From Prolixibacteraceae bacterium (lineage in GTDB: Bacteria; Bacteroidota; Bacteroidia; Bacteroidales; Prolixibacteraceae), in NCBI GenBank assembly GCA_947475715.1, contig CANJNY010000013.1, positions 1 to 64,000 of the forward strand: DNA of 64,000 nucleotides, given 5' to 3'. Both the position numbers and the translations under genes were made by a program. Positions 22,785 through 53,370 of this stretch are shown here, in pieces; positions within the stretch are counted from its first letter, which is position 1, and the number at the start of each line of letters is the position of its first letter. The notes beneath the pieces are model-generated. The model was not told the DNA's origin, made no database searches, and saw nothing but the letters and a program-made list of their open reading frames with translations.

Positions 22785-25514
22785 GTGAAATCTATTCATT
22801 CCAAATACTGGTATAAGACTATTATTCTGATTATTACAATCCTGATCACCGTTCAGTCGGGGCAATCTCAGAATTTTGAGCAGATCAAAATTACCGGAAG
22901 TTATTCGCATGTTACGGCACCGGATTTTTTCAGTTCACTTGAGAAATCCTACGGCATCAATTTTTACTATAAAAAAGATTGGATCAATACGGCTGAGATT
23001 ACCTGCACGTTTAAGGATACACCGCTGATACAAGCCCTAAATCAGGCATTTAAAGGGCAAAAATTAAATTTTAAAATCTTTCAGGAGAATTCCATCATTG
23101 TTTATCCAGGAACTACGGAACAGATTCAGGAATTGGGATCAGAGGATGCCCGGGTTCTTGTTATTGGTGATCCCATTAATCGGGGGCGTTTTCAACGGGC
23201 AAAGGTGAGCGGAAGAGTCCTCGAGGGAAAAACCGGAGAACCACTTTCAGGGGCAATTGTCTTTAGTCCGGAATCCAAAACCGGGGTGGCAACAGATGCC
23301 CACGGGAGATATACCATTGAAATGCCAACGGGTGACGGGCATCTTGAAATATCGTTTCTTAGTTTCGAAAAACAAATTCAAAAGATACGGCTGATTCAGG
23401 ATGGGAATGCCGATTTCGAACTCTTTGAGCAGACTCATTCCATTTCGGAAGTTACGGTGGTGAGTGAATCTTCGAAAGGCTCCAAGGCGCAAATGAGCAT
23501 GGTGAAAATGAATGCGATCATGATCAGGGAGTTGCCTGTATTGATGGGTGAGGCTGATCTGATCAAGAGTCTGGTCCTGATGCCCGGAGTGCAGAGCGTG
23601 GGAGAGATGTCATCCGGCTTTAACGTGAGGGGGGGAAATACCGACCAGAATCTTGTCTTATTAAACGGAGCTCCTGTTTTTAATACTTCCCACATGTTTG
23701 GCTTCTTTTCGATGATTAATCCCGATAATGTTGAGGATGTCACCCTCTTTATGGGGGGTATTCCTTCATCTTATGGTGAGCGAATATCCTCGGTGATGGA
23801 TGTTCAAATGAAAGATGGAAACGATAAATCGCTTCGGATAAATGGCGGTCTTGGCCTGGTTAACAGTCGACTCACCATTGATGGACCGTTTGCTAAAAAG
23901 AAAAAAAGCTCATTTATGATCGGCGGACGCAGTACCTATTCCGATTGGATGCTCGCCAGGACTAAAAACGCTACCTTTATGAATAGTGTCGCCCATTTTT
24001 ATGATATCAACGGAACCGCCAATATCGAAATCAGCCCAAAAAATCATCTGAAATTAATGGGATACTTAAGCTCCGACCTCTTTAACCTCAATACCAGTTC
24101 ACTTTATAATTATGCCAACTCTCTGGGTTCGCTGAACTGGAAATTGAACCTTTCCGAAAAACTTGTCTCTAATCTGTCACTGGCCTACTCAAAATACGAT
24201 TTGAAAGTCAATCAAAAAGAGCCGTTGCACCCCCAGGACGACTATATCCTCAAATCAAATATTCAGTATAGCACTCTTAAGTATGCATTATCCCTTTATC
24301 CCAATGACAAACATCGCACCAGCAGCGGTTTACAGGCCATTGGATACCGGATCAACCCCGGTGAAATTGGCCCGTCACGGACAATCACCAACATCGTAAA
24401 ATTAGCAATGCGCCGGGAACAAGCTGCTGAAATGGCTCTGTTTGTGGATGACAATTTTGATCTCTCGGATAAATTTGCGTTTGATCTGGGATTACGTTAT
24501 ACCCACTTTATCAATTACGGGCCGGGAACCGTGTATAACTATGCAGCCGGAATAATCAGAAGCGAAAGCTCAATAACGGACTCCACCGTTTTTAAATCCG
24601 GAGATATCATCAAATCATACGGGGGTTTTGAACCCAGATTGTCGGCCAAATATAACCTTCATAACGGAGGATCTTTAAGATTAAGCTACCAGCGTATTCA
24701 CCAGTTTATCAGTCAGATCTCGAATACCGCGGTAATCTCTCCTGCAGATTACTGGAAGTCTGCCGATCAAAATATTGCCCCGATGATCAACGACCAGCTT
24801 GCTATCGGATATTTCAAAAGCCGAACCAATAGTATGTTTGAAACCTCGGTCGAAGTCTATTACAAGAAACTGCAAAATCTTACGGAATATGTCAACGGAG
24901 CACGGCTTCTGATGAATAACCATATCGAAACAGACCTGATCAATGCCAATGGATATTCTTACGGCATCGAATTGCTTGCGAAAAAGAGTATGGGACGTTT
25001 GAACGGATGGCTGAGCTATACCTACTCCAGAACCTTTCGAAAAGCTCAAAGCACCTTTGCAGAACAGCAAATCAACGGGGGAGGTTATTACCCTTCGGTT
25101 TACGACAAACCACACGATCTGACTGCCGTTATGAATTACAAAATCAGCCGGCGCTGGCGTTTCTCAGGAAACTTCGTCTTCTCCTCTGGCAGACCAATCA
25201 CACTGCCGGAAGAAAAATATTATTATGGCGGCAATGAAATTGTGATTTATTCCGACCGGAACAAATACCGAATGCCCCCCTATCACCGGATGGATCTCTC
25301 GATTACGCTGGACGAAAATCTGCGTAAAAAAAGGGTATGGAAAGGGAGCTGGACTTTCTCAATATACAACCTTTACGGGCGGAAAAATCCTTACTCAGTC
25401 TTTTACCGAAAGGAACCATCACTGCAAAGTGCGGATAAATCAGAGTATGCAATCTATAAATTATCAATCATTGGTGTCCCGATCCCTTCAATCACCTATA
25501 ATTTCAAGTTCTAA
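22785..25514 (+). CDS. STN-domain TonB-dependent receptor, cassette copy 1
   Basis: A 909-residue outer-membrane receptor with GTG start and signal peptide (~1-28, ending QSGQSQ). An STN domain at ~30-105 (SLEKSYGINFYYKKDW) is typical of receptors that signal to FecR anti-sigma factors. A carboxypeptidase-regulatory-like domain lies at ~140-215 (GRVLEGKTGEPLSGA), then a plug at ~235-345 (FNVRGGNTDQNLVLLNGAPV) and a beta-barrel ending in a family-like YNFKF. It imports an unknown ligand using TonB energy. It overlaps the next gene by one base (TAATG). No FecR or ECF sigma gene is adjacent. The second cassette (28998-31727) holds a close paralogue. Confidence 0.93.
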   Translation: MKSIHSKYWYKTIILIITILITVQSGQSQNFEQIKITGSYSHVTAPDFFSSLEKSYGINFYYKKDWINTAEITCTFKDTPLIQALNQAFKGQKLNFKIFQENSIIVYPGTTEQIQELGSEDARVLVIGDPINRGRFQRAKVSGRVLEGKTGEPLSGAIVFSPESKTGVATDAHGRYTIEMPTGDGHLEISFLSFEKQIQKIRLIQDGNADFELFEQTHSISEVTVVSESSKGSKAQMSMVKMNAIMIRELPVLMGEADLIKSLVLMPGVQSVGEMSSGFNVRGGNTDQNLVLLNGAPVFNTSHMFGFFSMINPDNVEDVTLFMGGIPSSYGERISSVMDVQMKDGNDKSLRINGGLGLVNSRLTIDGPFAKKKKSSFMIGGRSTYSDWMLARTKNATFMNSVAHFYDINGTANIEISPKNHLKLMGYLSSDLFNLNTSSLYNYANSLGSLNWKLNLSEKLVSNLSLAYSKYDLKVNQKEPLHPQDDYILKSNIQYSTLKYALSLYPNDKHRTSSGLQAIGYRINPGEIGPSRTITNIVKLAMRREQAAEMALFVDDNFDLSDKFAFDLGLRYTHFINYGPGTVYNYAAGIIRSESSITDSTVFKSGDIIKSYGGFEPRLSAKYNLHNGGSLRLSYQRIHQFISQISNTAVISPADYWKSADQNIAPMINDQLAIGYFKSRTNSMFETSVEVYYKKLQNLTEYVNGARLLMNNHIETDLINANGYSYGIELLAKKSMGRLNGWLSYTYSRTFRKAQSTFAEQQINGGGYYPSVYDKPHDLTAVMNYKISRRWRFSGNFVFSSGRPITLPEEKYYYGGNEIVIYSDRNKYRMPPYHRMDLSITLDENLRKKRVWKGSWTFSIYNLYGRKNPYSVFYRKEPSLQSADKSEYAIYKLSIIGVPIPSITYNFKF

Positions 25515-26566
25515 TGGCTAAAGCACTCCTATATTTATCGTTGATCGCGGCCATCCTTACCTCTTGCGAAGATATCTATCACCCTGCGATTGATATTGTT
25601 CAGGGACATTTAATTGTTGAATCACTTATTACCAACGATCCGAATCAGAATTATGTACATCTCACCAAAGGGACAAGTTTTTACAGTTTGAATCAATCCG
25701 ATGAAGTTACCGGAGCCACGGTAAACCTGATCGACGGTGGAGGAAAAATCATCAGGGGAAGTGAAAGCAATGCCGGAAATTTCCACTTCGATTTAGTCCC
25801 GGTGACGGGTCAGGATTATAAACTTCAGATTCTATTTAATAACGACACCTATGAATCGGAACCGGTGACGATGCCTCCACTCCCGTCGGTTACCAAATTC
25901 TACACCGAACGCATTGAACGGACCGAATATCAGAATGACGGATTCGGAAATCCTGTTCCGGTAAAAGTAATTGCCCGTGAGCTTTACCTCGATGCTCCAA
26001 ACACACCGGCACTCTCAAATTACCGGTTTGGAATGCGCAGTATTCTGGAATGGTATTATACTCCACCATTGAATGGGCCTTCCAGTCCACCTGTTTTTGG
26101 ATGGTTATCAGTATTCTATACTAAAAAATTCACCCTGGCCGGGCCGAAAAAATTCAGTCAGTCGGACCTCATCGAAAAGCAACCGCTCGTAACACTGAAA
26201 TACGGGACCGAAGGGTACATTCTACCCGACTCCACATTTACCGGTTGGATCTTTATCCTTGATCAATATGGTACATCAGCGGGTTCATACGATTATCATG
26301 AGAAACTGAACAGTCAGTTTTCGGCCAATGGAACTCTTTTTGATCCGATTCAAACCCAGGTTACCGGAAATATATTGTGTAAAACAAATCCTTCAAAGAA
26401 GGTCTACGGATATTTCGATCTGAACTCATACCGGCAATACCGTTATTATTTATATTTCACAGATCCAACCCCCGAGGGTAGCGTAACGCAACGGGAGATA
26501 ACCCGCTACCCCTATATTCCGGATGAAGGTCTTACAGCCTATTATCCTCCTGCCTGGTGGGAATAA
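25514..26566 (+). CDS. DUF4249 outer-membrane lipoprotein, cassette copy 1
   Basis: A 350-residue lipoprotein with lipobox ILTSC (Cys18). It is of the DUF4249 type usually found directly after TonB receptors in Bacteroidota, and it likely sits on the receptor as an accessory surface component, in place of SusD. Conserved features shared with its paralogue at 31727-32809 include HPAIxxxxGxLIV, a MPPxPxxxxFY block, a WIxIxDQYGTS block, FDPxQTQVTGNILCK and YGYFDLNSY. Its start codon overlaps the stop of the receptor, implying translational coupling. Ligand unknown. Confidence 0.85.
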   Translation: MAKALLYLSLIAAILTSCEDIYHPAIDIVQGHLIVESLITNDPNQNYVHLTKGTSFYSLNQSDEVTGATVNLIDGGGKIIRGSESNAGNFHFDLVPVTGQDYKLQILFNNDTYESEPVTMPPLPSVTKFYTERIERTEYQNDGFGNPVPVKVIARELYLDAPNTPALSNYRFGMRSILEWYYTPPLNGPSSPPVFGWLSVFYTKKFTLAGPKKFSQSDLIEKQPLVTLKYGTEGYILPDSTFTGWIFILDQYGTSAGSYDYHEKLNSQFSANGTLFDPIQTQVTGNILCKTNPSKKVYGYFDLNSYRQYRYYLYFTDPTPEGSVTQREITRYPYIPDEGLTAYYPPAWWE

Positions 26567-26598
26567 ATGATCAACGTGTGTATTAAACTGAATTTAAG

Positions 26599-28212
26599 GT
26601 GAAAAGAAAATTTGTCATACTTTTATTGCTCTTCGTAGCTCTTGCGGGATATAGTCAGGAGAAGGAATGCTTCGCGCTTTATACAGACCACGACCTCTGT
26701 ACAAGTGGCGAAACCCTTTTGATTAAAACATTCGCACCCTCCAACGAACAAACCGGGATGGTCACCATTGACCTTGTCAATTCCGAAGGCAAAATAATCA
26801 CAAAAATAAATCTGGAGCTAATTGATCATCAAGCCGATGGCTGCCTGTATCTGCCCGACTCACTGAGTTCAGGATACTATATGCTTCGAACCTCAACCAG
26901 GTCTTCCAGATCACAGACAATCAAAGAGTTATTTATCGCAAGCCGGTTTACGGGTGTATTGGAACTGAATGAAGTCTTGCGGCCTGCAAAAAAATTACCG
27001 ACCTCTGAACTTCAGATTCAGACGATCCGGATAAACGGAATCATGAATAATTATAAACAGAGGGAAAAAGGTATTGCCTCAATACAGATACCTGATGATC
27101 TGCTCCAACAAATTGAAGGAAATATCCATGTCAATATTGCAAGAGCAGTTCCTCAATATCATGGCAATTCATTTATCGTAAATACAAAATTACCCCCCGA
27201 CCAGATTATCGAAAAAGAGGGGATCATCCTTGAAGGAATTGTGACAGATCTCAAAACCGCACAACCTTTCAGGAATGCCGTTGTTTATCTCTCAATTTCC
27301 GATTCGATACCCGTTTTGAAATACTACCTTACCCGCGATGATGGCCGGTTCTATTTTCAGATAAAGGGGTGCTACGGAAAAATACCAGTTGTTATTCAGT
27401 GTATTGACAGGATAAATAATCGACTTCTGAAGATAGCACTCACCGATTCAGAAACTGGAAGAAGTGGATTACACTCCTTTGAAAAAAGCACGTTACCGGC
27501 TGAACTTAAGCGTGAAATTGCAAAAAACAGAGAAGCAGTTACAATCCGTAAGATATTTAATCAGCAGGAAATTGCGCTCCATCCGGCGACTCCGCTAAAA
27601 CCGGATTTCTATCCATTTTATGGCATCCCCAACACGATTGTATACCCCAAACTATATACCGATCTTCCCGATTTCAGTGAGATATCACGGGAGCTCTTAC
27701 CCGGTGTGAAATTCAGAACCTATAACAGGCTGCCATCCTTACAGGTTGTAAATTCGGCCACACACACCTTTTTCAATACCCCACCATTGGTTCTGCTTGA
27801 TGGCATTCCGGTTACGGACCTTAATGTGATTAAGAATATGGGATCCGTAAAAATCGAAAGGATAGAAATCTGCACCGGTGAACGATTTTTCGGTGATCTG
27901 ATTTTCCAGGGTGTTGTGGCAATCTACTCTGCAAAACCGATCGAAACGCTTCTTCCTGACTCTGACGATCTGTTCAAAATTAATGTGGAGGGGATTCAAC
28001 CTCAGGCAAAACTTAATCTCCCTCCTGAACCTTTATCGACAGAACCAGACCTGCGCAATACATTACTTTGGGAGCCCTCGTTAAAACCAAACCAAACAAT
28101 CCAATTAAATTTTCAGGTATCGGATATTAAGGGGAGTTATAAGGTGATTATACGTGGAAAAACCACTGAAGGTAAGCTCTTCTTTCAGGAACAAATTTTT
28201 GAAGTAAATTAA
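26599..28212 (+). CDS. MG2-like / TonB-plug-like secreted protein, cassette copy 1
   Basis: A 537-residue protein with GTG start and signal peptide (MKRKFVILLLLFVALAGYSQ). Residues ~25-115 resemble alpha-2-macroglobulin MG2-type domains of Bacteroidota (TDHDLCTSGETLLIKTFAP, YLPDSLSSGYYMLR). Residues ~210-290 look like a carboxypeptidase-regulatory beta-sandwich (EGIVTDLKTAQPFRNAVVYL). Residues ~355-450 resemble a TonB plug (PLVLLDGIPVTDLNVIKNMG, then GVVAIYS), but no barrel follows; the C-terminus is another beta-rich region. A block EISRELL.GVKFRTYNR is shared with its paralogue. Function unknown; possibly it docks to the receptor or its TonB system. It is followed 2 bp later by the 237-residue gene. 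Confidence 0.8.
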   Translation: MKRKFVILLLLFVALAGYSQEKECFALYTDHDLCTSGETLLIKTFAPSNEQTGMVTIDLVNSEGKIITKINLELIDHQADGCLYLPDSLSSGYYMLRTSTRSSRSQTIKELFIASRFTGVLELNEVLRPAKKLPTSELQIQTIRINGIMNNYKQREKGIASIQIPDDLLQQIEGNIHVNIARAVPQYHGNSFIVNTKLPPDQIIEKEGIILEGIVTDLKTAQPFRNAVVYLSISDSIPVLKYYLTRDDGRFYFQIKGCYGKIPVVIQCIDRINNRLLKIALTDSETGRSGLHSFEKSTLPAELKREIAKNREAVTIRKIFNQQEIALHPATPLKPDFYPFYGIPNTIVYPKLYTDLPDFSEISRELLPGVKFRTYNRLPSLQVVNSATHTFFNTPPLVLLDGIPVTDLNVIKNMGSVKIERIEICTGERFFGDLIFQGVVAIYSAKPIETLLPDSDDLFKINVEGIQPQAKLNLPPEPLSTEPDLRNTLLWEPSLKPNQTIQLNFQVSDIKGSYKVIIRGKTTEGKLFFQEQIFEVN

Positions 28213-28214
28213 CG

Positions 28215-28928
28215 ATGACCTACAAAATAGTATATCTCACAGCCCTTTTGAGCCTGTTGGCAACAAGATCGCTCATTGCACAGGAAACCGTAAACAAAGA
28301 CTGGAATATTGAAAAAATAAGGGGATCGCGCCTGATTCCTTACCTTACATTAAACGGAAATCCATACCTCACCGATAAATTTGTAACGGGAGAGATTGAA
28401 TTTGCTGACGGGGAGAAAATCACAAACCTAAGTCTGCGTTACAGCACTTTTCAGGATGAGGTTATTTATTACAATAATGTTTTAACGGCCCGGATAATCA
28501 TTGATAAAAGGAGTCTTCACAGCTTCTCATTTATTGACGCCGATGGCAGGTTAAGGAGATTCAGACAACAATATTACAATGGCTTTCTTCCTGAAAACCG
28601 CTATTTTGAAGTGTTAAGCGAGGGTGATTTCTCGCTTCTGGCATTCCGTAAAGTGATTATGCAGACCTGTCCGGTATATACCGATCTGTCGGGATCTCCT
28701 AAAAATATGGAGTACCAGAAAAGCTATACCTATTTTATATACAATCCCAAAACAGGGTATGAACAGATCAAAATCGGGAAAAATTCCCTGCTTTCGAAAT
28801 TCGATAAATCAAATCAAAAACTGGTAAAGAAAATTCTCCGAAGCAACAAAGTTGTTATAAAAGATGAATCCGATTTCATAAAAGCCTGGAACATGATCAG
28901 AAAGAATGGTATTGCAATGACCTTTTGA
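28215..28928 (+). CDS. Secreted protein of unknown family, cassette copy 1
   Basis: A 237-residue protein with signal peptide (MTYKIVYLTALLSLLATRSLIAQ). It is beta-rich, with WNIEKIRGSRLIPY, LSLRYSTFQDEVIYYN, and FRKxxxxTC in the middle. The C-terminus has the block SNQKLVKKILRSN followed by a short helix. It is paralogous with 34495-35196, sharing these blocks in order. I do not recognise the family. It starts 2 bp after the MG2-like gene and is the last gene of the first cassette, so it probably acts in the same process. It has no lipobox, so it is probably periplasmic. Confidence 0.75.
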   Translation: MTYKIVYLTALLSLLATRSLIAQETVNKDWNIEKIRGSRLIPYLTLNGNPYLTDKFVTGEIEFADGEKITNLSLRYSTFQDEVIYYNNVLTARIIIDKRSLHSFSFIDADGRLRRFRQQYYNGFLPENRYFEVLSEGDFSLLAFRKVIMQTCPVYTDLSGSPKNMEYQKSYTYFIYNPKTGYEQIKIGKNSLLSKFDKSNQKLVKKILRSNKVVIKDESDFIKAWNMIRKNGIAMTF

Positions 28929-28941
28929 ATTAAAAATTCAC

Positions 28942-28949
28942 TACTTTTG
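28942..28949 (+). promoter_or_regulatory. -7 box candidate for cassette 2
   Basis: TACTTTTG matches TAnnTTTG, 56 bp before the GTG start of the second receptor, and overlaps an in-frame TTG at 28947. This argues that TTG is part of the promoter and not the start codon. A TTTG lies 14 bp upstream, too close for a standard -33 element. Confidence 0.45.
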
Positions 28950-28997
28950 AAAAACTGCATTTTATCATTTTTATCATTCTCAAGAACACGCCTCATT

Positions 28998-31727
28998 GTG
29001 AAGCATCTTCAGTTTAAGTATTTATACAAGGCTATCTTTCTGTTTATTATAATTCTTCTTTCAATCCAGAATGTTCAGTCACAAGAGATTCAGGAGATGA
29101 AAATCACCGAAAGCTTCACCAATACTCCGCTTGAGCAGTTATTGAATTCGCTTGAGAAAAAATATGGAATCAGGTTTTTCTATAAGGCAGAGTGGATTAA
29201 GACGGTTGAAGTTACTGGCTCATTCAAAACCGTTCCGCTGGTTCAGGTTTTGAATCAAACTTTAAAAGGCACCGAGCTGAGTTTTAAATTCTTTCAAAAC
29301 AGATCGGTATTCGTTTTTCCAAAGGCTTCGGAATCAACCTCGGAGTCCGGCAAGGACGAATCGAAGCTTTTGACTATTGGCGATCCAATTAATGAGGGGC
29401 GATATCAGCGGGCAAAAATCCGAGGCAGGGTAGTTGAGGGTAAAACAGGTGCTCCCCTTTCAGGTGCAGTGGTTTACAATTCCGAGACAAAAGCAGGCGT
29501 TGCCACTGATTCAAAAGGACGTTATACAATCGACCTGCCAACAGGTGAGATGCATTTAAGGGTCTCTTTTATGAGTTTTGAGCTTCAGAATGAGAAGATC
29601 AGGCTGATTCAGGATGGGAATGCCGATTTTGAATTGTTTGAAGAGACCCATAATTTAAATGAGGTAACCGTTATCAGCGAAAATTCCAAAGCCACCAAGG
29701 CACAGATGAGCATGGTGAAGATGTCTGCAATCACCATAAAAGAGCTTCCTGTCCTGATGGGAGAGGCTGACTTAATCAAAAGCATCGTGATGATGCCCGG
29801 TGTTCAGACCATTGGAGAGATGTCATCCGGATTCAACGTTCGGGGTGGCAATACCGATCAAAACCTTGTTCTGCTGAATGGTTCACCGGTTTTCAATACA
29901 ACCCATCTGTTTGGTTTTCTTTCGATGGTCAATCCCGATGCCATTGAAGAGGTAACCCTTTTCAAAGGGGGTATTCCCGCCTCCTACGGCGAGCGGATCT
30001 CTTCGGTCATGGATGTCCAGCTTAAGGATGGGAGTAATAATAACCTGCAAATAAACGGAGGCATTGGGCTAATTAACAGCCGATTGCTTATTGAAGGACC
30101 ATTTGCGAAAAAGAAAAAAAGCACATTCTTAATCGGTGGGAGGAGTACCTACTCTGACTGGTTGCTCAAGCAAACAAAAAATGCCACTTTTATGAACAGC
30201 GTGGCCCATTTTTATGACCTTAACGGAAGTGCAAACTTCGTATTTAATCCTAAAAATCATTTGAAATTAACCGGTTATTTAAGCGGTGATGTTTTTAACC
30301 TTAATTCAAGTTCACTCTATAACTATGCCAATTCTTTGGGTTCCTTAAACTGGAAATTGAATCTCTCTGAAAAACTGGTTTCCAGCTTAAGTCTGGCCTA
30401 CTCCAAATACAATCTGAAGGTTGATCAGAAAGATCCAATTCTTACGGCAAATGACTATACCCTGAGTTCCAATATTCAATACGGGAGCCTCAAATATGCA
30501 CTCTCATTTTATCCGAATGACAAACACCGCATAAGCACCGGTTTTCAGGGAATCGGATATTGGATCAACCCCGGCAAAATCACCCCTTCAACAGCCATTT
30601 CAAACGTAATCTCCTCAGCAATGCGGCCGGAACAATCTGCCGAGATGGCCCTCTTTGCAGACGACGATTTCAACCTTACCGATAAACTGTCATTTAATAT
30701 CGGATTGCGTTACTCCTATTTCATGAATTACGGACCGGGGATGGCCTATAATTACGCTCCCGGCTTTTCGAAAAGCGTCACAACAATCACTGATTCAACA
30801 AGCTATAATTCAGGAGCAACAATTAAGTCCTATCAGGGAGTTGAGCCTCGGCTGGCAGTCAAATATAATCTGGAAAATGGCGGGTCATTGCGTCTGAACT
30901 ACCAGCGAATCCATCAATACATTAGTCAGGTTTCGAATACCGCGGTAATTTCACCCGCAGATTACTGGAAATCTGCAGATCAGAATGTGGCACCATTGAT
31001 AAACGACCAGATTGCGCTTGGCTTTTTCAAAAATCCAGCCAATGGAAAGTTTGAAACCTCAGTGGAGGTCTATTACAAGAAATTACAAAATATCCTCGAT
31101 TACAAAAATGGGGCTCAACTGGTAATGAACAAACACATCGAAACAGATCTTTTGCAGGCAAACGGTTATGCCTACGGATTTGAACTGCTGGCCAGGAAAA
31201 ATACAGGAAGGCTAAATGGCTGGATCAGTTATACCTATTCGCGCTCTTTTCAAAAAGCTGATGGTCAATATTCTGACCAGAAGATTAACAAAGGGGCCTG
31301 GTACCGTTCTGTTTACGACAAACCCAATGATTTTTCGGCTGTAATGAATTATAAAATCAGCAGACGCTGGCGTTTTTCCGGAAACTTCGTCTATTCAACA
31401 GGAAGGCCGATTACATTACCTGAGCAAAAATATATGTATGACTCGTATCAGGTGGTGGTTTTCTCCGAAAGGAATAAATACCGCATGCCATCCTATAATC
31501 GCCTCGATATTAGTATTACCCTGGACGAAAATCTGCGTAAGAGACGGATGTGGAAAGGGAGCTGGACCTTCTCAATCTACAATGTTTACGGGCGAAGCAA
31601 CCCATATTCGGTTTTCTACCGCAAAGGGACGATGATCCAGGATTCAGGTCAAAGCAGTTACCAGATCTACATGATGTCAATCATTGGGGTACCCGTTCCA
31701 TCGATCACTTATAATTTTAAATTCTGA
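28998..31727 (+). CDS. STN-domain TonB-dependent receptor, cassette copy 2
   Basis: A 909-residue receptor paralogous to 22785-25514. I place the start at GTG 28998, which gives a signal peptide aligned with copy 1 (VKHLQFKYLYKAIFLF...VQSQ). A longer TTG start at 28947 would add 17 residues and overlap the -7 box. Domains run in the same order: STN, carboxypeptidase-regulatory-like, plug, barrel ending YNFKF. Several blocks are identical to copy 1 over 15 or more residues (SLYNYANSLGSLNWKLNLS, MSSGFNVRGGNTDQNLVLL). The variable parts include the region after the STN domain and a stretch near ADGQYSDQKINKGAW. It overlaps the next gene by one base. Confidence 0.92.
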   Translation: MKHLQFKYLYKAIFLFIIILLSIQNVQSQEIQEMKITESFTNTPLEQLLNSLEKKYGIRFFYKAEWIKTVEVTGSFKTVPLVQVLNQTLKGTELSFKFFQNRSVFVFPKASESTSESGKDESKLLTIGDPINEGRYQRAKIRGRVVEGKTGAPLSGAVVYNSETKAGVATDSKGRYTIDLPTGEMHLRVSFMSFELQNEKIRLIQDGNADFELFEETHNLNEVTVISENSKATKAQMSMVKMSAITIKELPVLMGEADLIKSIVMMPGVQTIGEMSSGFNVRGGNTDQNLVLLNGSPVFNTTHLFGFLSMVNPDAIEEVTLFKGGIPASYGERISSVMDVQLKDGSNNNLQINGGIGLINSRLLIEGPFAKKKKSTFLIGGRSTYSDWLLKQTKNATFMNSVAHFYDLNGSANFVFNPKNHLKLTGYLSGDVFNLNSSSLYNYANSLGSLNWKLNLSEKLVSSLSLAYSKYNLKVDQKDPILTANDYTLSSNIQYGSLKYALSFYPNDKHRISTGFQGIGYWINPGKITPSTAISNVISSAMRPEQSAEMALFADDDFNLTDKLSFNIGLRYSYFMNYGPGMAYNYAPGFSKSVTTITDSTSYNSGATIKSYQGVEPRLAVKYNLENGGSLRLNYQRIHQYISQVSNTAVISPADYWKSADQNVAPLINDQIALGFFKNPANGKFETSVEVYYKKLQNILDYKNGAQLVMNKHIETDLLQANGYAYGFELLARKNTGRLNGWISYTYSRSFQKADGQYSDQKINKGAWYRSVYDKPNDFSAVMNYKISRRWRFSGNFVYSTGRPITLPEQKYMYDSYQVVVFSERNKYRMPSYNRLDISITLDENLRKRRMWKGSWTFSIYNVYGRSNPYSVFYRKGTMIQDSGQSSYQIYMMSIIGVPVPSITYNFKF

Positions 31728-32809
31728 TGCAAAAAGAACTATATTATCTGTTAGCGATATTGGTTCTCTTCGTCTCGTGCGAACGGATTTACCACCCTGC
31801 TATCGAAAAGGTTGAAGGGCAGCTTATCGTTGATGCAAAAATTACCAATGACCCCGCTAAAAGCCTAGTCCATCTCTCAAAGACCCGCAGTTTTTATGAC
31901 GTGGAACGACCGATTGAAATCTCAGGAGCAAAGGTAGAGCTGGTCCAAATGGGTGGCGTTGCAGGATTTGCCGTTCAGGCATCTGAACGAAATACCGGCT
32001 ATTACACCTTTAATACCGCTCCGCAAAGCGGTAACCGGTATTATTTGCGTCTCACCATCGGTAGTGACGTTTATGAATCATTGGCCGTTACAATGCCCCC
32101 AATACCTGCGTTGACTAATTTCTATACAATTGATAAGGTGAGCAAAATTTATGTTGCCGATGCTCAGGGCAACCCAAAACCGTTTGAGAAACGGGGACGG
32201 GAAATTGACGTAGATTTACCCGTAAACGAATCACTCTCCCACTATCGCTTTGATGTGCGTTCTCTTTTAGAGTGGACCTGGGATTCAATTCCATCGGCAT
32301 ATTCGATTTATCCTACAGCATACGGCTGGCAATCGTATTTCCAACACCAAAATTTCAACCTGGCCGGCCCCACCGGGTTCAATCAGGTTGATCAGATTAA
32401 AAATCATCCCCTTTTATTGATTTCCTATGAGGTAAAAGATTACCTCTACACCGATACTCTGGCCTCCAAAGGATGGATTCTGATAATCGATCAATATGGC
32501 ACCTCCACTGAATCGTATGAATTTCACCAACAACTGAATAACCAGTTTGCCGCAACCGGTAGTCTTTTCGATCCGGTACAGACTCAGGTCACCGGAAATA
32601 TCCTTTGCAAAACCGATCCGACACAGATTGTTTATGGCTACTTCGATCTGAACTCATATCAGCAGTACCGTTATTATTTCAATGTGTTTAGCCCCTCTGT
32701 TGCACCTGTAATCAGGCAACTCTATCGTTTCCCTGATATTCCGGATTACGGATTTGTGAAGGCAGTTAATAAAAAACCAATTGTCAAACCCTCCTGGTGG
32801 GAGGAATAA
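31727..32809 (+). CDS. DUF4249 outer-membrane lipoprotein, cassette copy 2
   Basis: A 360-residue lipoprotein (lipobox LFVSC, Cys18) of the same DUF4249 family as the copy-1 gene. Conserved blocks include HPAIEKVEGQLIVDAK, a WILIIDQYGTSTES block, FDPVQTQVTGNILCK and YGYFDLNSYQQYRYY; much of the middle has diverged. It begins inside the receptor stop codon and likely forms the surface partner of that receptor. The C-terminus ends PSWWEE, paralogous to the PAWWE of copy 1, so that short Trp-rich tail is under constraint. Confidence 0.85.
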   Translation: MQKELYYLLAILVLFVSCERIYHPAIEKVEGQLIVDAKITNDPAKSLVHLSKTRSFYDVERPIEISGAKVELVQMGGVAGFAVQASERNTGYYTFNTAPQSGNRYYLRLTIGSDVYESLAVTMPPIPALTNFYTIDKVSKIYVADAQGNPKPFEKRGREIDVDLPVNESLSHYRFDVRSLLEWTWDSIPSAYSIYPTAYGWQSYFQHQNFNLAGPTGFNQVDQIKNHPLLLISYEVKDYLYTDTLASKGWILIIDQYGTSTESYEFHQQLNNQFAATGSLFDPVQTQVTGNILCKTDPTQIVYGYFDLNSYQQYRYYFNVFSPSVAPVIRQLYRFPDIPDYGFVKAVNKKPIVKPSWWEE

Positions 32810-32882
32810 TTGAGAATATTCTAAATTTTTTAATCAGAAAATAAGCAGCACCATTCAGAAAATTAAAAACGGAGCTATTAAC

Positions 32883-34493
32883 GTGAAAAGAAAACTAATT
32901 ATAGTGTTACTTCTGATTGTTGTAATCACCGGCAAAGCACAGGATAACAACCATTTCACTCTCTTTACTGACCGCGATCTCTATGCCAGTGGTGAAACAC
33001 TTTTGCTAAAGCTATTTGCACCTAACAAGGAGAATTCAGGAATCGTCAATGTTGATCTGATAAACTCAACCGGAAAAGTAATCCTGGGCATAAACAAGAA
33101 AATAATTGATCAACAGGCAGATGGATTTATGTATCTACCTGATTCACTAAGCTCGGGATGCTATTTTCTTTGTTTGTCAACCAAAATCGGTAAAGAATAT
33201 ACCATTAAAGAGATCTACGTTGCAAACCGATTTACAGGAATACCCGAATCGGGGGGAGCATTACGAGCCTCCGGAACCAACCCAATCATTACCATACCCG
33301 CAGGTGACCTGCAAACCGAAGGACTGAACAAAATATACAAAACAAGGGATAAGGTAAAAGTAACCCTTCGTTTGCCATCCGAATTTCTATCACGATTAAA
33401 CGGTAATCTGCTTGCAAGCATTTCCAAAGCAACTCCGGAATACAATCCGGCACCTTTTACCAAAAGTGTTGGCTCCAGAAACCTCATTGTTGAGCATGAA
33501 GGGGTTGTTCTTGAAGGTAAAATTACCGATCTTAAAACCGGAGAACCAGTTAATAAAGGGGTTGTTTTCCTCTCGATTCCCGATACCGTTCCACGATTTA
33601 ATTTTTTTATTACCGGAAAAGATGGACGGTTTAACTTCCAGCTTGACAATTACTATGGTAAGACTCCCGTTGTGGTTCAGGGGTTTGATGGAGACGGAAA
33701 AAAACTTGTTAAAATAGCTGTAAATGAAGGAGATTCATTAAAAAGCATCCTCCCTGATTTTGAAACATGGATCATTCCAACTGAACTGCGCAAGAGTTCC
33801 GAACAAAATACCGAAGCTGTAACCTTCAGTAAGATCTTTAATCAACAGGAGCTTGCCGTTCAACCGGTTCTTCGTCCCAAAGCTGAGCCTTTACCATTTT
33901 ACGGAATTCCTCCAACCGTGGTTTACCCGAAACTTTTTATTGATCTTCCTGATTTTACTGAAATCTCACGCGAACTGTTAACAGGGGTCAAATTCAGGAC
34001 CTATAACAGAATCCCAACTTTACAGGTATTTAACACTTCGCAACGTTCCTATTTTAACGAACCTCCTTTATTATTACTCAACGGCATACCTGTCAGAGAT
34101 CTAAGTACTATCAAAAATCTGGGATCAGCATCGATATCAAAGGTTGAAATAAGTATGAGCGAAAGGTATTATGGGAATCTGCGCTTTCCCGGAGTAGTTG
34201 TCATTAACACGACAAAACCTGATTATTCACCTGTCGTTGAAGCTGATGATTTAATCAAGCTAAACCTTGAAACCATGCAACCCGATGCCACGGTAATTAC
34301 CCCAGGTGAAACACCATTAAACGTTCCTGATCTTCGGAAAGTATTGCTTTGGAAACCCTCCTTAAAACCCGCCAAGACAATCCATCTTGATTTTGGAACA
34401 TCTGATATTTTAGGCAATTATAAAATGATTATTCGGGGAACAACCAATGACGGATCTGTTTTTTATAAAGAACAACTATTTGAGGTAAATTAA
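32883..34493 (+). CDS. MG2-like / TonB-plug-like secreted protein, cassette copy 2
   Basis: A 536-residue paralogue of 26599-28212 with GTG start and signal peptide (MKRKLIIVLLLIVVITGKAQ). It has the same order of regions: MG2-like (~25-115; TDRDLYASGETLLLKLFAP, YLPDSLSSGCYFL), carboxypeptidase-regulatory-like (~210-285; LEGKITDLKTGEPVNKGVVF), and plug-like (~360-450; PLLLLNGIPVRDLSTIKNLG, GVVVINT). No barrel is present. Here the MG2 domain matches the family form TDRDLYxxGE better than copy 1. A 73-bp gap separates it from the DUF4249 gene. Function unknown. Confidence 0.8.
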   Translation: MKRKLIIVLLLIVVITGKAQDNNHFTLFTDRDLYASGETLLLKLFAPNKENSGIVNVDLINSTGKVILGINKKIIDQQADGFMYLPDSLSSGCYFLCLSTKIGKEYTIKEIYVANRFTGIPESGGALRASGTNPIITIPAGDLQTEGLNKIYKTRDKVKVTLRLPSEFLSRLNGNLLASISKATPEYNPAPFTKSVGSRNLIVEHEGVVLEGKITDLKTGEPVNKGVVFLSIPDTVPRFNFFITGKDGRFNFQLDNYYGKTPVVVQGFDGDGKKLVKIAVNEGDSLKSILPDFETWIIPTELRKSSEQNTEAVTFSKIFNQQELAVQPVLRPKAEPLPFYGIPPTVVYPKLFIDLPDFTEISRELLTGVKFRTYNRIPTLQVFNTSQRSYFNEPPLLLLNGIPVRDLSTIKNLGSASISKVEISMSERYYGNLRFPGVVVINTTKPDYSPVVEADDLIKLNLETMQPDATVITPGETPLNVPDLRKVLLWKPSLKPAKTIHLDFGTSDILGNYKMIIRGTTNDGSVFYKEQLFEVN

Positions 34494-34494
34494 T

Positions 34495-35196
34495 ATGGCC
34501 AACAGGATCCTTTTGACAATCATCTTTTTGGCGTTGGTCGCGGCAACATCGCTCACCGCCCAGGAAACGCAACAGAAAAACTGGAATACAGAGAAAATAA
34601 AAGGGATGCGATTTATTCCTTATCCTCCTTATTCCGGAACACCTTATTTCAATGAAAAATTCATTCTTGGAGAAATTGAATTTACCGGGGGATCTACAAT
34701 AAAAAATATTGGATTACGCTACAGCTCCTTTCGCGATGAGCTGATCTATTACAATACAGATATCTCTACCCAGATTGTAATCGACAGGATCACACTCAAA
34801 GGATTTTCATTCACCGATGAACTTGGGTTAAAACATATTTTTCGCCGGCAATATTTCGACCTCATATCCCATGAGGAACGTTTCTTCGAGGTATTAAGTG
34901 ATGGCAAAATTGCACTCCTTGCTTTTCGGAAAGCAGATCTCGAAACCTGTGATACCTCCTTTAGCAAATATGGACTGGCGTATCAGCCAAGCTCTTACTA
35001 TTATATCTATCATACCGAAAGAGGTTATTCTTCAATTAAAATAAACCGCAGTTCATTACTCACAAAATTTACTAAATCCAATCAGAAACTGGTAAAAAAG
35101 CTACTTCGCAAAAACAGTGTACAGATCGCTGACGAACAGAGCTTTATCGCTGCATGGGATCTGGTGGTCAAAAACGACATTCCTGTAAACTTTTAA
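34495..35196 (+). CDS. Secreted protein of unknown family, cassette copy 2
   Basis: A 233-residue paralogue of 28215-28928 with signal peptide (MANRILLTIIFLALVAATSLTAQ). It shares WNTEKIKGMRFIPY, LRYSSFRDELIYYN, FFEVLSDGKIALLAFRK and SNQKLVKKLLRKN with copy 1, so these blocks mark the family's core. The start is 1 bp after the previous stop. It is the last gene of the cassette and is followed by an imperfect hairpin. Family not recognised. Confidence 0.75.
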   Translation: MANRILLTIIFLALVAATSLTAQETQQKNWNTEKIKGMRFIPYPPYSGTPYFNEKFILGEIEFTGGSTIKNIGLRYSSFRDELIYYNTDISTQIVIDRITLKGFSFTDELGLKHIFRRQYFDLISHEERFFEVLSDGKIALLAFRKADLETCDTSFSKYGLAYQPSSYYYIYHTERGYSSIKINRSSLLTKFTKSNQKLVKKLLRKNSVQIADEQSFIAAWDLVVKNDIPVNF

Positions 35197-35597: not shown

Positions 35598-35744
35598 CTA
35601 TTCGAATGAAAATAATAATCAATGAACTATAATTCCGATCTGTGATAATCTGTCCGTTGTAGCAGTCAAATGATCGAGATCCCATTCTGAAGCAACGCAG
35701 TTGCAAAACCTTAATTGTCCTTCATTTTAATCGTAAAACATCGC

Positions 35745-35752
35745 TATTTTTG
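35745..35752 (+). promoter_or_regulatory. -7 box candidate for the acetolactate decarboxylase gene
   Basis: TATTTTTG followed by C, 28 bp before ATG 35781, matches TAnnTTTG. It falls inside the longer in-frame extension that would start at 35715, supporting the later start. Confidence 0.4.
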
Positions 35753-35780
35753 CACTACATTTTATCCAAAAACATTACAA

Positions 35781-36575
35781 ATGAGAAACTCCGTCTTTAA
35801 CCTCATAATTAGTGGTGCACTCTTTTCCATATATGCCTTTTCACCCAAATCCAACACAGAAAAAAAACAAATTTCAATCTATCAGTATTCCACCTTAAGC
35901 GCACTGCTGGAAGGGATTTATGATGGTGAAATGACCATTGGGGGACTTAAAAAACAAGGTGATTTTGGAATTGGAACTTTTAATGCGCTTGATGGCGAGT
36001 TAATCATGTTTAAAGGGAGGTGTTACAAAGCAACCTCCGATTCGAAAATAATAACGATGAACGACACGGTAAAGACCCCCTTTGCCGCAATCTGCAACTT
36101 CAGATCGGATACTGTCATCAGGATAAACCACCGGGTTAAAATCAAGACACTTGAAAGCTATCTGGATAGTATAATCTCAAAACCGAATCTGATCTTTGCC
36201 TATCAGATTACAGGGAAGTTTGATACCATTGTAATTCGGAGTGTTCCGAAGCAGGAGAAGCCTTATAAAAGATTGATTGAGGCCTATAAAAAACAAGGGG
36301 TTTTTACTTTAACGGACCAGGAAGGGGTCCTCTTAGGGTATAAATTCCCCAAATACCTCAAAGATGTGAATATGGACGATTACCATTTCCACTTTCTTTC
36401 GAACGACAAAACAAAGGGGGGACACCTATTGAATTGCTCCATCTTAAGTGCAGAGGTTTCGGTAGCCTATATCCGGAATTATAATCTGCAGCTTCCGGAT
36501 AATTCCTATTTTAACCACACGACATTTTCAAATAAAAAATCGGAGCTCAAACAGGTTGAGGGGGCTGAAAAATAA
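35781..36575 (+). CDS. Alpha-acetolactate decarboxylase, exported
   Basis: A 264-residue enzyme of the BudA/AlsD family, which converts acetolactate to acetoin. Family blocks are present in order: QYSTLSALLEGIYDGEMTIG, FGIGTFNALDGELIM, TPFAAICNF, and the zinc site YHFHFLSNDKTKGGH with His202, His204 and His215. I start at ATG 35781 (MRNSVFNLIISGALF), giving a signal peptide or membrane anchor, because a -7 box lies inside the longer frame starting at 35715. An exported version is known in a few bacteria, but the role outside the cytoplasm is unclear. No acetolactate synthase or acetoin reductase gene is next to it. Confidence 0.85.
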   Translation: MRNSVFNLIISGALFSIYAFSPKSNTEKKQISIYQYSTLSALLEGIYDGEMTIGGLKKQGDFGIGTFNALDGELIMFKGRCYKATSDSKIITMNDTVKTPFAAICNFRSDTVIRINHRVKIKTLESYLDSIISKPNLIFAYQITGKFDTIVIRSVPKQEKPYKRLIEAYKKQGVFTLTDQEGVLLGYKFPKYLKDVNMDDYHFHFLSNDKTKGGHLLNCSILSAEVSVAYIRNYNLQLPDNSYFNHTTFSNKKSELKQVEGAEK

Positions 36576-37078: not shown

Positions 37079-39367
37079 TCATCTCTGCCAATTCACCTTA
37101 GCCATTTTCAGATCCCGCGAGTTCCCCCCGACCATAATCACAAAATCACCCGCCTCCCAATCGTATTTAAGATCGCCATTATAGAATTTCAGATCTTCGG
37201 GAGTAATTTTGAACGTTACCGATTTGGTTTCCCCTGCCTTTAAGAAGATTTTCTGAAAACCCTTCAGCTCTTTTAACGGACGTGTAACCGATCCAACTAC
37301 ATCCCGGATATAAAGTTGAACTACCTCTGCCCCATCGTATTTGCCCGAGTTGGTTAATGGGATTGTTGCTGTAAGCGAAACACTTCCCTTTAACTGCGAA
37401 GCACTTAATTTCAGATCGTCATATTGAAAAGAGGTATAGCTTAAACCATAACCAAATGGATATACCGGTTCGTTGGAAACATCGAGGTAGTTGGAACGGA
37501 ACTTGGTAAACCACGTCCCTTCAACCAACGGTCGTCCGGTGTTTTTGGAATTATAATAAAGCGGAATCTGACCTACATTCTGAGGAAAGGTTGCAGTCAA
37601 TTTTCCGGAAGGATTAACCTGTCCAAAAAGGACATCCGCGATTGCATTGCCCGCCTCAGTTCCGGAGAACCAAACATCCAGAATAGCCGGAACATTTTCA
37701 TTCTCCCACGGTAAAGCCAGCGGTCTGCCGTTAAAAAGGATCATTACCACCGGTTTACCGGTTGCAATCAACGCCTTTAAAAGTTCTTTCTGGTTTTCAG
37801 GCAATCCAATATCCGATCTGCTTGAACACTCTCCGCTCATTTCGGCGCTCTCCCCCATTGCTGCCACGATCACATCCGATTTTTTGGCAACCTCAATGGC
37901 CTCTTCAATCATCTCCTTCTGGGAACGGTTCTGCCTAAATGTCGGTTTCCCGAAAATACTAACCCGCGAATCGAGGATAGAATCATTCAGAATGTTGGTC
38001 CCCCAGGCACTTAATATTTTGGCATCATCTCCAACCGCAGTTTTAATTCCGGTAAGGAGCGAAACACATTTTGAAAAATCCCCGGCAACACTCCAGGTAC
38101 CGGTCATATTCAGTTTATTATCAGCAAGAGGTCCAATTACAGCAATCGTCCCCCCTTTTTTTAGTGGCAGAATCTGGCTCTTATTTTTCAAAAGAACAAG
38201 TGACTGAGCTGCAGTTTCACGCGAAATCTGACGATTCTCCGTGGTGAAAACCTCTGTTCTGGCACGGTTTTCATCACAATACCGGTATGGATCTTCAAAA
38301 AGTCCTAACGTATATTTAGCCTCAAGAACTCTCCGACATCCCTGTTCTATATCCAATTTAGTAACCTTCCCCTCTGCCAGAGATTTTTTTAAAGTTGTCA
38401 AAAACCCCTCACTTACCATATCCATATCGGTACCGGCATGAAGCGCCCGGGCTGAAACCTCATTTAAATCACCTATTCCATGTTCAATCATTTCAGAGAT
38501 ACCGGTATAGTCAGTTACCACAAAACCTTGAAATCCCCACTGTTTGCGAAGCACGTCGGTCAATAACCACCTGTTGGCCGTGGCTGGTATACCATCCACC
38601 TCGTTAAATGATGCCATCGCGCTACCGGCACCTGCGTCAATGGCAGCCTTGTAGGGTGGAAAATATTCGTTATACATCCTGATCCTGCTCATATCCGTTG
38701 TGTTGTAATCACGACCGGCCTCTGAGGCGCCATATAGCGCAAAGTGTTTCACGCAGGCCATGAGCGTATTATTCTTCCCAAGGTCATCCCCCTGAAAACC
38801 GACAACCATTGCCCTGGCGATCTGAGCTCCGAGGTAAGGATCCTCTCCCGAGCCTTCTGACATCCTGCCCCAGCGCGGATCGCGTGAAATATCAACCATG
38901 GGTCCAAAAGTCCAGCAAATACCATCGGCAGTGGCCTCCTGAGCCGCAACCCTGGCCGAACGCTCAATCAGCTTCATATCCCAGCTGCATGACAGTCCCA
39001 GCGGAATCGGAAAAATAGTCTGATAACCGTGAATCACATCCATACCAAAGAGGATCGGTATTTTTAAACGGCTCTCTTCGACGGCAATTTTCTGAACTTC
39101 CCGAATCTTACCTGCCGATTTCAGATTCAAAATTGCCCCGATATTCCCTTCCCTGATTTTTTTGCTGATCCCGGAGCTCTTAGCCTGACCAGTTACGATA
39201 TCACCTGCCCCGGACAAATTTAACTGACCGATCTTTTCATCCAAAGTCATCTTATTCAAAAGATTCGTAATGAATTGATTCATTTTCGGATCTGAAATTC
39301 GTTGAGCAAAAGAATAGACAACCAGAATTTGGAATAAGATCGAAAAAAGAATAGATTTTGCGCTCAT
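37079..39367 (-). CDS. GH3 beta-glucosidase, last gene of the polysaccharide locus
   Basis: A 762-residue exported enzyme with signal peptide (~1-21, MSAKSILFSILFQILVVYSFA). An N-terminal TIM barrel carries the GH3 nucleophile Asp286 in GFVVTDYTGISEM. An alpha/beta sandwich domain follows (~390-600, NGRPLALPW), and a C-terminal Fn3-like domain (~660-755). Family members release terminal beta-linked glucose or xylose. Paired with two GH144-type genes in the same locus, a role on sophoro-oligosaccharides from beta-1,2-glucan is plausible (inference). It is the 3'-most gene of the SusC-SusD operon. Confidence 0.93.
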   Translation of the reverse strand: MSAKSILFSILFQILVVYSFAQRISDPKMNQFITNLLNKMTLDEKIGQLNLSGAGDIVTGQAKSSGISKKIREGNIGAILNLKSAGKIREVQKIAVEESRLKIPILFGMDVIHGYQTIFPIPLGLSCSWDMKLIERSARVAAQEATADGICWTFGPMVDISRDPRWGRMSEGSGEDPYLGAQIARAMVVGFQGDDLGKNNTLMACVKHFALYGASEAGRDYNTTDMSRIRMYNEYFPPYKAAIDAGAGSAMASFNEVDGIPATANRWLLTDVLRKQWGFQGFVVTDYTGISEMIEHGIGDLNEVSARALHAGTDMDMVSEGFLTTLKKSLAEGKVTKLDIEQGCRRVLEAKYTLGLFEDPYRYCDENRARTEVFTTENRQISRETAAQSLVLLKNKSQILPLKKGGTIAVIGPLADNKLNMTGTWSVAGDFSKCVSLLTGIKTAVGDDAKILSAWGTNILNDSILDSRVSIFGKPTFRQNRSQKEMIEEAIEVAKKSDVIVAAMGESAEMSGECSSRSDIGLPENQKELLKALIATGKPVVMILFNGRPLALPWENENVPAILDVWFSGTEAGNAIADVLFGQVNPSGKLTATFPQNVGQIPLYYNSKNTGRPLVEGTWFTKFRSNYLDVSNEPVYPFGYGLSYTSFQYDDLKLSASQLKGSVSLTATIPLTNSGKYDGAEVVQLYIRDVVGSVTRPLKELKGFQKIFLKAGETKSVTFKITPEDLKFYNGDLKYDWEAGDFVIMVGGNSRDLKMAKVNWQR

Positions 39368-39479
39368 TGTATTAATATTTTGAAATTTAAGATGTTTTCT
39401 TTATTGAATTATTTTATGCTTTACATTGCCAGGGTTGCAGCCAATATTTATTATACTTTCCCTGCCGGATAACAATTCC

Positions 39480-41219: not shown

Positions 41220-41259
41220 GACTGCTATTCTTTATTCATCCTTTTAATCTGTTTTTAAA

Positions 41260-43788: not shown

Positions 43789-43843
43789 TATGATTTACGG
43801 TAATTAGAATAATATTTTTCCGGATTAGAATTTTCATTATAAA

Positions 43844-45217: not shown

Positions 45218-45251
45218 CGTCTAACTTTCTAATAGATTAAAGCAAACATGC

Positions 45252-46910: not shown

Positions 46911-47039
46911 TCTTTGGTTGTGAATTTATTATCGTAATTTTCCTATGTAGGTTGCCCGGAAATATATCCGGGCAACCATAATAAGAAAAGATGATACCTT
47001 AATGATCGTTTAAGAACAAGCTAATTATAAATCAGCATA

Positions 47040-48776: not shown

Positions 48777-48802
48777 TTCATTTTAATGATCAGTACTTGC
48801 GA

Positions 48803-50335: not shown

Positions 50336-50355
50336 AATTATAACTTTTTAAAATA

Positions 50356-53300: not shown

Positions 53301-53370
53301 CTGCGCTCTGCTGAGCGTAAAGAAAAGTAACTGATAAAAATAGATTCAACAGAAAGATTAGTTTTTTCAT
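50356..53370 (-). CDS. SusC/RagA family TonB-dependent outer-membrane transporter
   Basis: A 1004-residue transporter. A signal (~1-20, ending YAQQ) is followed by a carboxypeptidase-regulatory-like domain at ~22-110 (ISGKVSNAANGDPIPGVTII), a plug at ~115-235 (VVVVGYGTQKVKDLTSSI, GIGSYPGANNEAPLYVVDG), and a 22-stranded barrel. It imports oligosaccharides released at the surface together with SusD. It is the first gene of the operon. The 373-bp gap upstream to the divergent regulator is AT-rich and likely holds the promoters of both, though I found no consensus match. Confidence 0.96.
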   Translation of the reverse strand: MKKLIFLLNLFLSVTFLYAQQSAAISGKVSNAANGDPIPGVTIIVKGTTTGVITDLNGNYSIKAAGNGTLVFSFVGMIPEEVSINNRSTINVQLKDQTIDVSEVVVVGYGTQKVKDLTSSITTVKSDELVKTPTGQAMQALQGKVAGLQVVSSGAPGDSPTIRVRGIGSYPGANNEAPLYVVDGMFFSNIDFLNTSEIASISVLKDASAAAIYGVRAANGVVLIETKSGGFNQKTQISYSGYYGTQNAQNVLKMANAEQFTTMANESGSAPDALFVLNAMQRYGRSRINPNVPDVNTDWYKEVIRPAAIQNHSLDVSGGSDKTSYHIGTNYFAQDGILNMNNGYTRMNMSAKLDIKATDWLTIGGNMNFSNALKDNANSSAWKDAYFAVPIMPVMDESNTLARPIRYANAQDLGYRSGENPFPTLNYTKGQLKIRKLLANFYATVDLIPKKLSFKTTYNNAYSGLDERTVDLPYFIGNSFQRPDASINKIASTYFDQIWDNVLTFNNSYGDHNITVMAGTSYRDEAYNKLFAQGLNFPTENQQSWYINQAGKIVEAGVGDDGAHVYGLSYFGRISYNFKEKYLLYGTMRADGSSKYQEKWGYFPTVGAGWVMSEESFLKGNKVVDFLKLRASWGELGNDKIQASDGATTTSVVNTAINGVLVPGTVTSSTFSSLKWEVTEEKNLGITAKLLRSRLSVDADYFVRDTKNAAISVTIPAIGGSVLKNVGIIRNSGFELALNWNDKITDKLRYTIGGNISTLKNEVRNLYGQPYIDGGTAEFRQRSIVGQPLLSYFGREVVGVYQNAAEIAADPIAVANNLVPGDLKYKDQNGDKILNDDDRVVLGSYFPTMMYGFNLGLTYEDFEFSANMLGQSGNKILNRKRGEVIWTADGNMDADLANNRWHGDGTSNKYPSSSGLRRGWNQKMSNYFVEDGSFFRIQNVQLAYNIRNKELFGTKLPNMRVSLTADRPLTMFRYHGFNPEVADGFDNQTYPIPAVYTVGLNINF

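What the first reader, a model, noticed from the sequence alone, without database searches (positions are those of the whole stretch)
22785..35196. Tandem duplication of an uncharacterised four-gene receptor cassette
The same four gene types occur twice in a row: STN-TonB receptor, DUF4249 lipoprotein, MG2/plug-like protein, and a ~235-residue secreted protein. In both copies the receptor overlaps the lipoprotein by one base, the third gene starts with GTG, and the fourth starts 1-2 bp after it. Receptor plus DUF4249 pairs are common, but I do not recognise the four-gene unit as a described system. The conserved spacing suggests the four products act together at the outer membrane, for example in import or surface assembly of a shared substrate.
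Basis: partly seen in the sequence, partly recalled or inferred. Interest (0 to 1): 0.75.

Follow-up and report, generated by a model that had tools for sequence, protein, structure and literature searches.

The report
Receptor-lid cassette with two secreted partners
Two side-by-side copies of a four-gene outer-membrane uptake module, found in many Bacteroidota, in which a receptor's periplasmic signalling-type domain travels with two unstudied secreted proteins instead of its usual anti-sigma partner.

Summary
Two tandem four-gene cassettes fill 22785-35196: a TonB receptor with an STN-type domain (T), a DUF4249 lipoprotein (D), a macroglobulin-fold/plug-like protein (P3) and a secreted protein of about 235 residues (P4). 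Copies are 69, 48, 49 and 51% identical. The unit recurs across Bacteroidota, mostly as P4-T-D-P3 or T-D-P3-P4.

New here: DUF4249 receptors fall into three architectures: (A) no STN, receptor-DUF4249 pair only; (B) STN receptor with FecR, usually an ECF sigma factor, and D; (C) STN receptor with D and P3, usually P4, without FecR of its own. In the receptor-seeded sample 48 of 48 scorable STN receptors have P3; 21 of 22 without STN lack it. B and C are separate clades. Three near-complete genomes of one genus carry class C genes but no detectable FecR (STN seen in two of them).

Best reading: a lid-gated, TonB-powered importer whose STN domain has been re-partnered to P3/P4. Import is inferred from family knowledge; the STN contact from gene association and weak co-variation, resting on few evolutionary events. 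Substrate unknown. P4 is modelled confidently (pLDDT 92.9) and matched no solved fold.

The parts
22785..25514 (+). T1: TonB-dependent receptor, 909 aa, STN-type N-terminal domain, CarboxypepD-like, plug, barrel
   Evidence: (STN below Pfam cut-off)
22878..23114 (+). STN-type domain of T1 (about residues 32-110)
   Evidence: Pfam STN/FecR_C matches; class C extension matches class B STN by profile
25514..26566 (+). D1: DUF4249 lipoprotein, proposed lid
   Evidence: 82.2 bits, cut-off 28.5
26599..28212 (+). P3-1: macroglobulin-fold protein with CarboxypepD-like and plug-like regions, 537 aa, GTG start
28215..28928 (+). P4-1: secreted protein, 237 aa, fold without PDB match
28998..31727 (+). T2: second receptor, proposed GTG start, 909 aa (ORF finder start TTG 28947)
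31727..32809 (+). D2: DUF4249 lipoprotein
   Evidence: 80.0 bits
32883..34493 (+). P3-2: homologue of P3-1, 536 aa, GTG start
   Evidence: 49% identity
34495..35196 (+). P4-2: homologue of P4-1, 233 aa
   Evidence: 51% identity

Best explanation
Each cassette encodes one outer-membrane uptake complex. T is a TonB-dependent transporter and D its surface lid or capture lipoprotein (inferred from published work on receptor/DUF4249 pairs). T also carries a periplasmic STN domain. In other STN receptors of this family that domain sits beside FecR (anti-sigma), usually with an ECF sigma factor. Here that place is taken by P3, a secreted macroglobulin-fold protein with a plug-like region, and P4, a secreted protein with a confidently predicted fold that matched nothing in the PDB. 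Proposed mechanism: in the periplasm P4, with P3 as scaffold, docks on the STN/linker of T and either receives the imported substrate or senses that the receptor is occupied, instead of signalling through FecR. Shown: the anatomy, the conserved linkage, the three architectures, and FecR-free genomes with class C cassettes. Inferred: the location of P3/P4 (only from their N-terminal signal-peptide-like stretches, read by eye), the physical contact, and import as the function.
For: Conserved unit: 39 P4-T-D-P3, 30 T-D-P3-P4 and many variants among 117 distinct STN receptors, linkage persisting when order or strand changes; P4 changes side at least 4 times on the receptor tree. STN and P3: in the receptor-seeded set 48 of 48 scorable STN receptors have P3 and 21 of 22 scorable receptors without STN lack it; the exception (L153) counts the P3 of a neighbouring STN receptor; 10 of 80 receptors were not scorable, and receptors already counted in P4-seeded loci were left out as duplicates. 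FecR instead of P3: of 20 DUF4249 loci picked for having no co-located P3, 6 have STN receptors, each with FecR immediately upstream; 11 have receptors without STN and none of these has FecR; 3 are unclear. FecR within four genes of STN receptors in the window and L038-L231: 1 of 117, namely L186, where a separate sigma-FecR-receptor-D operon follows the cassette. In 14 cassette genomes no FecR match lies within 20 kb of a four-gene cassette (coordinates). Class B (7) and the main class C group (55) are separate clades with support 99 each. G241, G032 and G146 (96-98% complete) have no FecR or FecR_C match, while cassettes in G241 (L045, L068) and G146 (L224) have STN extensions. STN covaries with P4 after receptor-core divergence is removed (r 0.186, p 0.001; 0.138 and 0.181 in the two gene-order groups), with P3 not significantly. 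Literature: BT2172/BT2173 receptor/DUF4249 operon with similar mutant effects (PMC11003636, passages); STN acts with anti-sigma factors (PMC7782687, passages).
Against: Few evolutionary events lie behind the STN-P3 association: 4 changes of class on the tree, 3 independent pairs on supported branches, sign test p 1. P4 is not obligatory: three basal class C receptors (L122, L125, L139) and a few others have P3 but no P4, and 22 of 60 P4 are unlinked. Co-variation does not follow likely contacts: D-P3 (0.293), P3-P4 (0.279) and D-P4 (0.262) exceed STN-P4, although D should be outside and P4 inside; in one gene-order group STN also covaries with D (0.252, p 0.002). STN in T1/T2 is below Pfam's cut-off. 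Sigma-profile hits lie within about four genes of class C cassettes in L041/L117 (one organism) and L075, and directly after D in class A loci L164 and L251, so sigma genes alone do not separate the classes; FecR does. Most genomes with cassettes do have FecR somewhere (13 of 14; 12 of 16). The FecR profile used on the loci was built from six class B proteins and not calibrated. No direct evidence of interaction, location, expression or substrate.
Confidence: 0.5

Rival explanations
1. Plain importer with periplasmic helpers: P3 and P4 handle the substrate or stabilise the receptor, and the STN serves something else and does not touch them.
For: The scanned flanking genes show no common regulator or enzyme; D is multiplied in some cassettes (5 in L066; 3 in L099, L103 and L124), which points to substrate capture; D-P3 and D-P4 co-variation exceeds STN-P4.
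Against: Receptors of the same family without STN lack P3 in 21 of 22 scorable cases, the other being a neighbour's P3; on this view that needs another reason.
Confidence: 0.25
2. The STN signals to a FecR encoded elsewhere in the genome, and P3/P4 have nothing to do with it.
For: 13 of 14 cassette genomes have FecR genes, 19 matches in the window's genome.
Against: G241, G032 and G146 have no FecR or FecR_C match, with STN cassettes verified in G241 and G146; FecR sits directly beside the STN receptors of class B.
Confidence: 0.1
3. Surface assembly or protection: the macroglobulin-like P3 works as scaffold or trap beside the receptor rather than in import.
For: The P3 model matches bacterial alpha-2-macroglobulins and complement chains.
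Against: Only about 200 of 537 residues align, with low Foldseek TM-scores (0.24 or less in the rows shown); P3 follows the receptor type closely.
Confidence: 0.1

Closest known systems
TonB receptor/DUF4249 pair (BT2172-BT2173 type)
   Same: Receptor plus DUF4249 lipoprotein as an operon; receptor cores of one family.
   Different: Class A pairs found here lack the STN extension, P3 and P4. Whether BT2172 itself has an STN was not tested.
SusCD/RagAB lid-gated importers
   Same: Receptor with a CarboxypepD-like N-terminal domain plus a lipoprotein encoded next to it.
   Different: The lipoprotein is DUF4249, not SusD; two extra secreted proteins.
Cell-surface signalling (STN receptor, FecR, ECF sigma)
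   Same: STN-type domain on the receptor; class B DUF4249 receptors have FecR beside them.
   Different: Class C has no FecR of its own; it has P3/P4; its extension is longer (median 137 against 103 residues) and an IG motif precedes the CarboxypepD-like domain in 48 of 58 class C, 0 of 8 class B and 1 of 38 class A receptors (regular expression chosen after seeing the sequences).
Bacterial alpha-2-macroglobulins
   Same: P3 model shares MG-type domains (Z up to 15.6); MG2 in 16 of 25 relatives.
   Different: P3 is far shorter, has a plug-like region and sits in a receptor cassette.

Membership tests
TonB-dependent receptor (T) | Plug and beta-barrel domains | tested here: met
   both above Pfam cut-off in both copies
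TonB-dependent receptor (T) | TonB-dependent transport | not testable with these tools
   needs mutants
DUF4249 (D) | PF14054 above cut-off | tested here: met
   82.2 and 80.0 bits against 28.5
Cell-surface signalling system | STN domain on the receptor | tested here: met
   below Pfam cut-off in T1/T2; profile-profile match of class C extensions to class B STN 97.8%, E 1.3e-12
Cell-surface signalling system | FecR encoded beside the receptor | tested here: not met
   none of the 19 FecR matches of the window's genome is on its contig C13; 1 of 117 STN receptors has FecR within four genes, from an adjacent operon
alpha-2-macroglobulin family (P3) | MG domains | tested here: met
   by model (Z 15.6) and in 16 of 25 relatives; no MG2 hit in the two window copies themselves
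alpha-2-macroglobulin family (P3) | thioester domain and protease trapping | not tested
   not searched for specifically
Any described family or solved fold (P4) | match to a family or PDB fold | tested here: inconclusive
   single-member stray hits among 35 relatives; Foldseek best E 0.082; no Z of 2 or more among 993 chains

The most novel reading that the evidence does not exclude
A second kind of STN transducer: in class C receptors the signalling-type domain has been re-partnered from FecR to a periplasmic two-protein module, with P4 (possibly a new fold) as the STN contact and P3 as a macroglobulin-like scaffold, giving a FecR-independent way to sense or relay receptor occupancy.
Probability: 0.35. 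Interest if true: 0.8.

Novelty: new variant of a known kind. Interest (0 to 1): 0.6.

Why it matters
STN domains are known mainly as partners of FecR-type anti-sigma factors. A widespread receptor class that keeps the STN but carries two other secreted proteins instead, also in genomes without detectable FecR, makes it directly testable what else an STN can bind. P4 is a clear target for a first structure, and the cassette ties an orphan macroglobulin-like protein to outer-membrane uptake.

Tried and rejected
Conserved neighbours: 61 of 109 flanking genes from 33 loci were scanned; the commonest Pfam family was in 3 of 61, 25 of 96 families were shown. Promoter-like sites: 30 found, 31.2 expected; terminator-like sites 18, 12.7 expected; uninformative. 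PDB sequence hits of P4 (YTH domain, best E 0.0058) taken as chance. Crossing-over between tandem copies as origin of the single cassette of L098: distinguishing sites nearer copy 1 / copy 2 are 89/112 in T, 63/31 in D, 71/71 in P3, 25/42 in P4: suggestive only. An STN profile alone missed many extensions (18 receptors with P3 and P4 but no profile hit); extension length was then used. Not searched: Rfam, PHROGs, PADLOC, and the viral, phage, plasmid and E. coli collections. Apart from macroglobulin/complement chains, one adhesin repeat (6xi3) was among the 50 Foldseek rows shown for P3. Absence from print is not claimed; full-text searches were made, in a library without the preprint on lids that PMC11003636 cites.

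Full report
WHAT IS THERE. Two tandem copies of a four-gene cassette lie on the + strand: T1 22785-25514, D1 25514-26566, P3-1 26599-28212, P4-1 28215-28928; T2 (proposed GTG start 28998) to 31727, D2 31727-32809, P3-2 32883-34493, P4-2 34495-35196. Copy identities are 69, 48, 49 and 51%. T has CarboxypepD-like, plug and barrel domains above Pfam cut-off and an STN match below it; D is DUF4249; P3 and P4 have no match above a cut-off.

THE UNIT IS CONSERVED. In 247 genomes of the order, a P4 match was found in 39, a P3 match in 80 (weak matches to longer relatives included) and DUF4249 in 209. Simple ORF calls were labelled with profiles. Among 117 distinct STN receptors the commonest arrangements are P4-T-D-P3 (39) and T-D-P3-P4 (30); others repeat D or put D and P3 on the other strand. 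P3 is linked to T or D in 74 of 83 cases, P4 in 27 of 60. P4 changes side at least 4 times on the receptor tree yet stays linked. Named carriers include Draconibacterium orientale, Pontibacter burrus, Mucilaginibacter species, Flavobacterium terrigena and Chitinophaga costaii.

P3 AND P4. Among 25 P3 relatives MG2 matches 16, CarboxypepD_reg 5 and Plug 2 at E up to 0.01. The model of P3-1 (pLDDT 86.2, pTM 0.80) matches macroglobulin and complement chains (Foldseek best E 5.8e-10, 127 chains at E 0.001 or better, low TM-scores; VIA Z up to 15.6 over 209 residues). P4-1 is modelled confidently (pLDDT 92.9, pTM 0.83); Foldseek's best PDB match has E 0.082 and none of 993 chains reached Z 2. Its 35 aligned members have only stray single hits in Pfam and NCBIfam. 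This does not prove a new fold.

THREE ARCHITECTURES. Of the receptor-seeded receptors, 48 of 48 scorable with the STN-type extension have P3 within four genes and 21 of 22 scorable without it lack P3; the exception counts the P3 of a neighbouring STN receptor; 10 of 80 were not scorable. Over all loci, seeded by P3 and P4 as well and so biased, 111 of 111 scorable have P3. For the reverse test I took 20 DUF4249 hits without a co-located P3 from the upper part of the list (not random). Six have STN receptors, each with FecR immediately upstream; an ECF sigma gene was confirmed by Pfam in L232, L233, L235 and L238, a sigma-profile hit lies near in L237, none was seen in L240. Eleven have receptors without STN and no FecR; L239, L244 and L249 are unclear. 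So: class A, receptor and D; class B, FecR with STN receptor and D; class C, STN receptor, D, P3 and mostly P4. FecR lies within four genes of 1 of 117 STN receptors elsewhere, in L186, where a class B operon follows the cassette. Sigma-profile hits alone do not separate the classes: they also lie near class C cassettes in L041/L117 and L075 and after D in class A loci L164 and L251. The class C extension is a relative of class B STN (hhalign 97.8%, E 1.3e-12).

INDEPENDENCE AND LIMITS. On a quick tree of 110 receptors class B (7) and the main class C group (55) are separate clades, support 99 each, with class A around both; one class B receptor (L186) stands alone, and three class C receptors with P3 but no P4 group with class A at support 75. 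That is 4 changes in all, and the independent-pair test has only 3 pairs and p 1: the association reflects few events. The strongest single point is that G241, G032 and G146 (one genus, 96-98% complete) have no FecR or FecR_C match, while cassettes in G241 (L045, L068) and G146 (L224) have STN extensions of 113-121 residues; in G032 the receptor is not on the fetched contig. G052 also lacks FecR but is 85% complete.

CO-VARIATION. Over 76 cassettes, after removing receptor-core divergence, STN correlates with P4 (0.186, p 0.001), not with P3 (-0.043) or D (0.006); but D-P3 (0.293), P3-P4 (0.279) and D-P4 (0.262) are larger. Within gene-order groups STN-P4 holds (0.138, p 0.024; 0.181, p 0.004), and in one group STN-D is larger (0.252). 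A lead, not proof.

DUPLICATION. L098 has one cassette between the same kinds of neighbour as the window's two; it is nearer to copy 2 in T and P4, to copy 1 in D, equal in P3. Gain and loss cannot be told apart here.

LITERATURE. PMC11003636 (passages, outline and part of the reference list; [quoted passage not shown] the lid role of DUF4249 is taken from that title. PMC7782687 (passages): STN domains, in SusCs too, act with anti-sigma factors. PMC11637429 (abstract and outline): the signalling domain of FoxA binds FoxR. PMC12611786: passages only, not used.

VERDICT. A real and conserved arrangement, not found described in my searches; most likely a lid-gated importer whose STN has been re-partnered to P3/P4.

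Noticed in passing
window 37079-53370, - strand: Glycan-utilisation-type cluster just downstream: GH3, GH43, GH31, two putative glucoamylases and a 1004-aa receptor without STN extension.
   Followed up: partly
window 35715-36575: Alpha-acetolactate decarboxylase gene follows the second cassette, and also the single cassette of L098.
   Followed up: partly
L066, L099, L103, L124: Several DUF4249 genes in a row (5, 3, 3 and 3) in one cassette with a single receptor.
   Followed up: no
L186: A class C cassette directly followed by a sigma-FecR-receptor-DUF4249 operon.
   Followed up: partly
L098 9001-15171: Single cassette that is nearer to window copy 1 in D and to copy 2 in P4, mixed in T and P3.
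   Followed up: partly
L096 (own genome, contig C72): A further receptor (772 aa) beside a DUF4249 match near a contig start.
   Followed up: no
L094 (own genome, contig C126): A solitary 832-aa relative of P3, longer than the cassette form.
   Followed up: no
L101 and L038, downstream of the cassette: A protein of about 255 aa (weak outer-membrane barrel match in L101) and a LVIVD-repeat protein follow the cassette in both.
   Followed up: no
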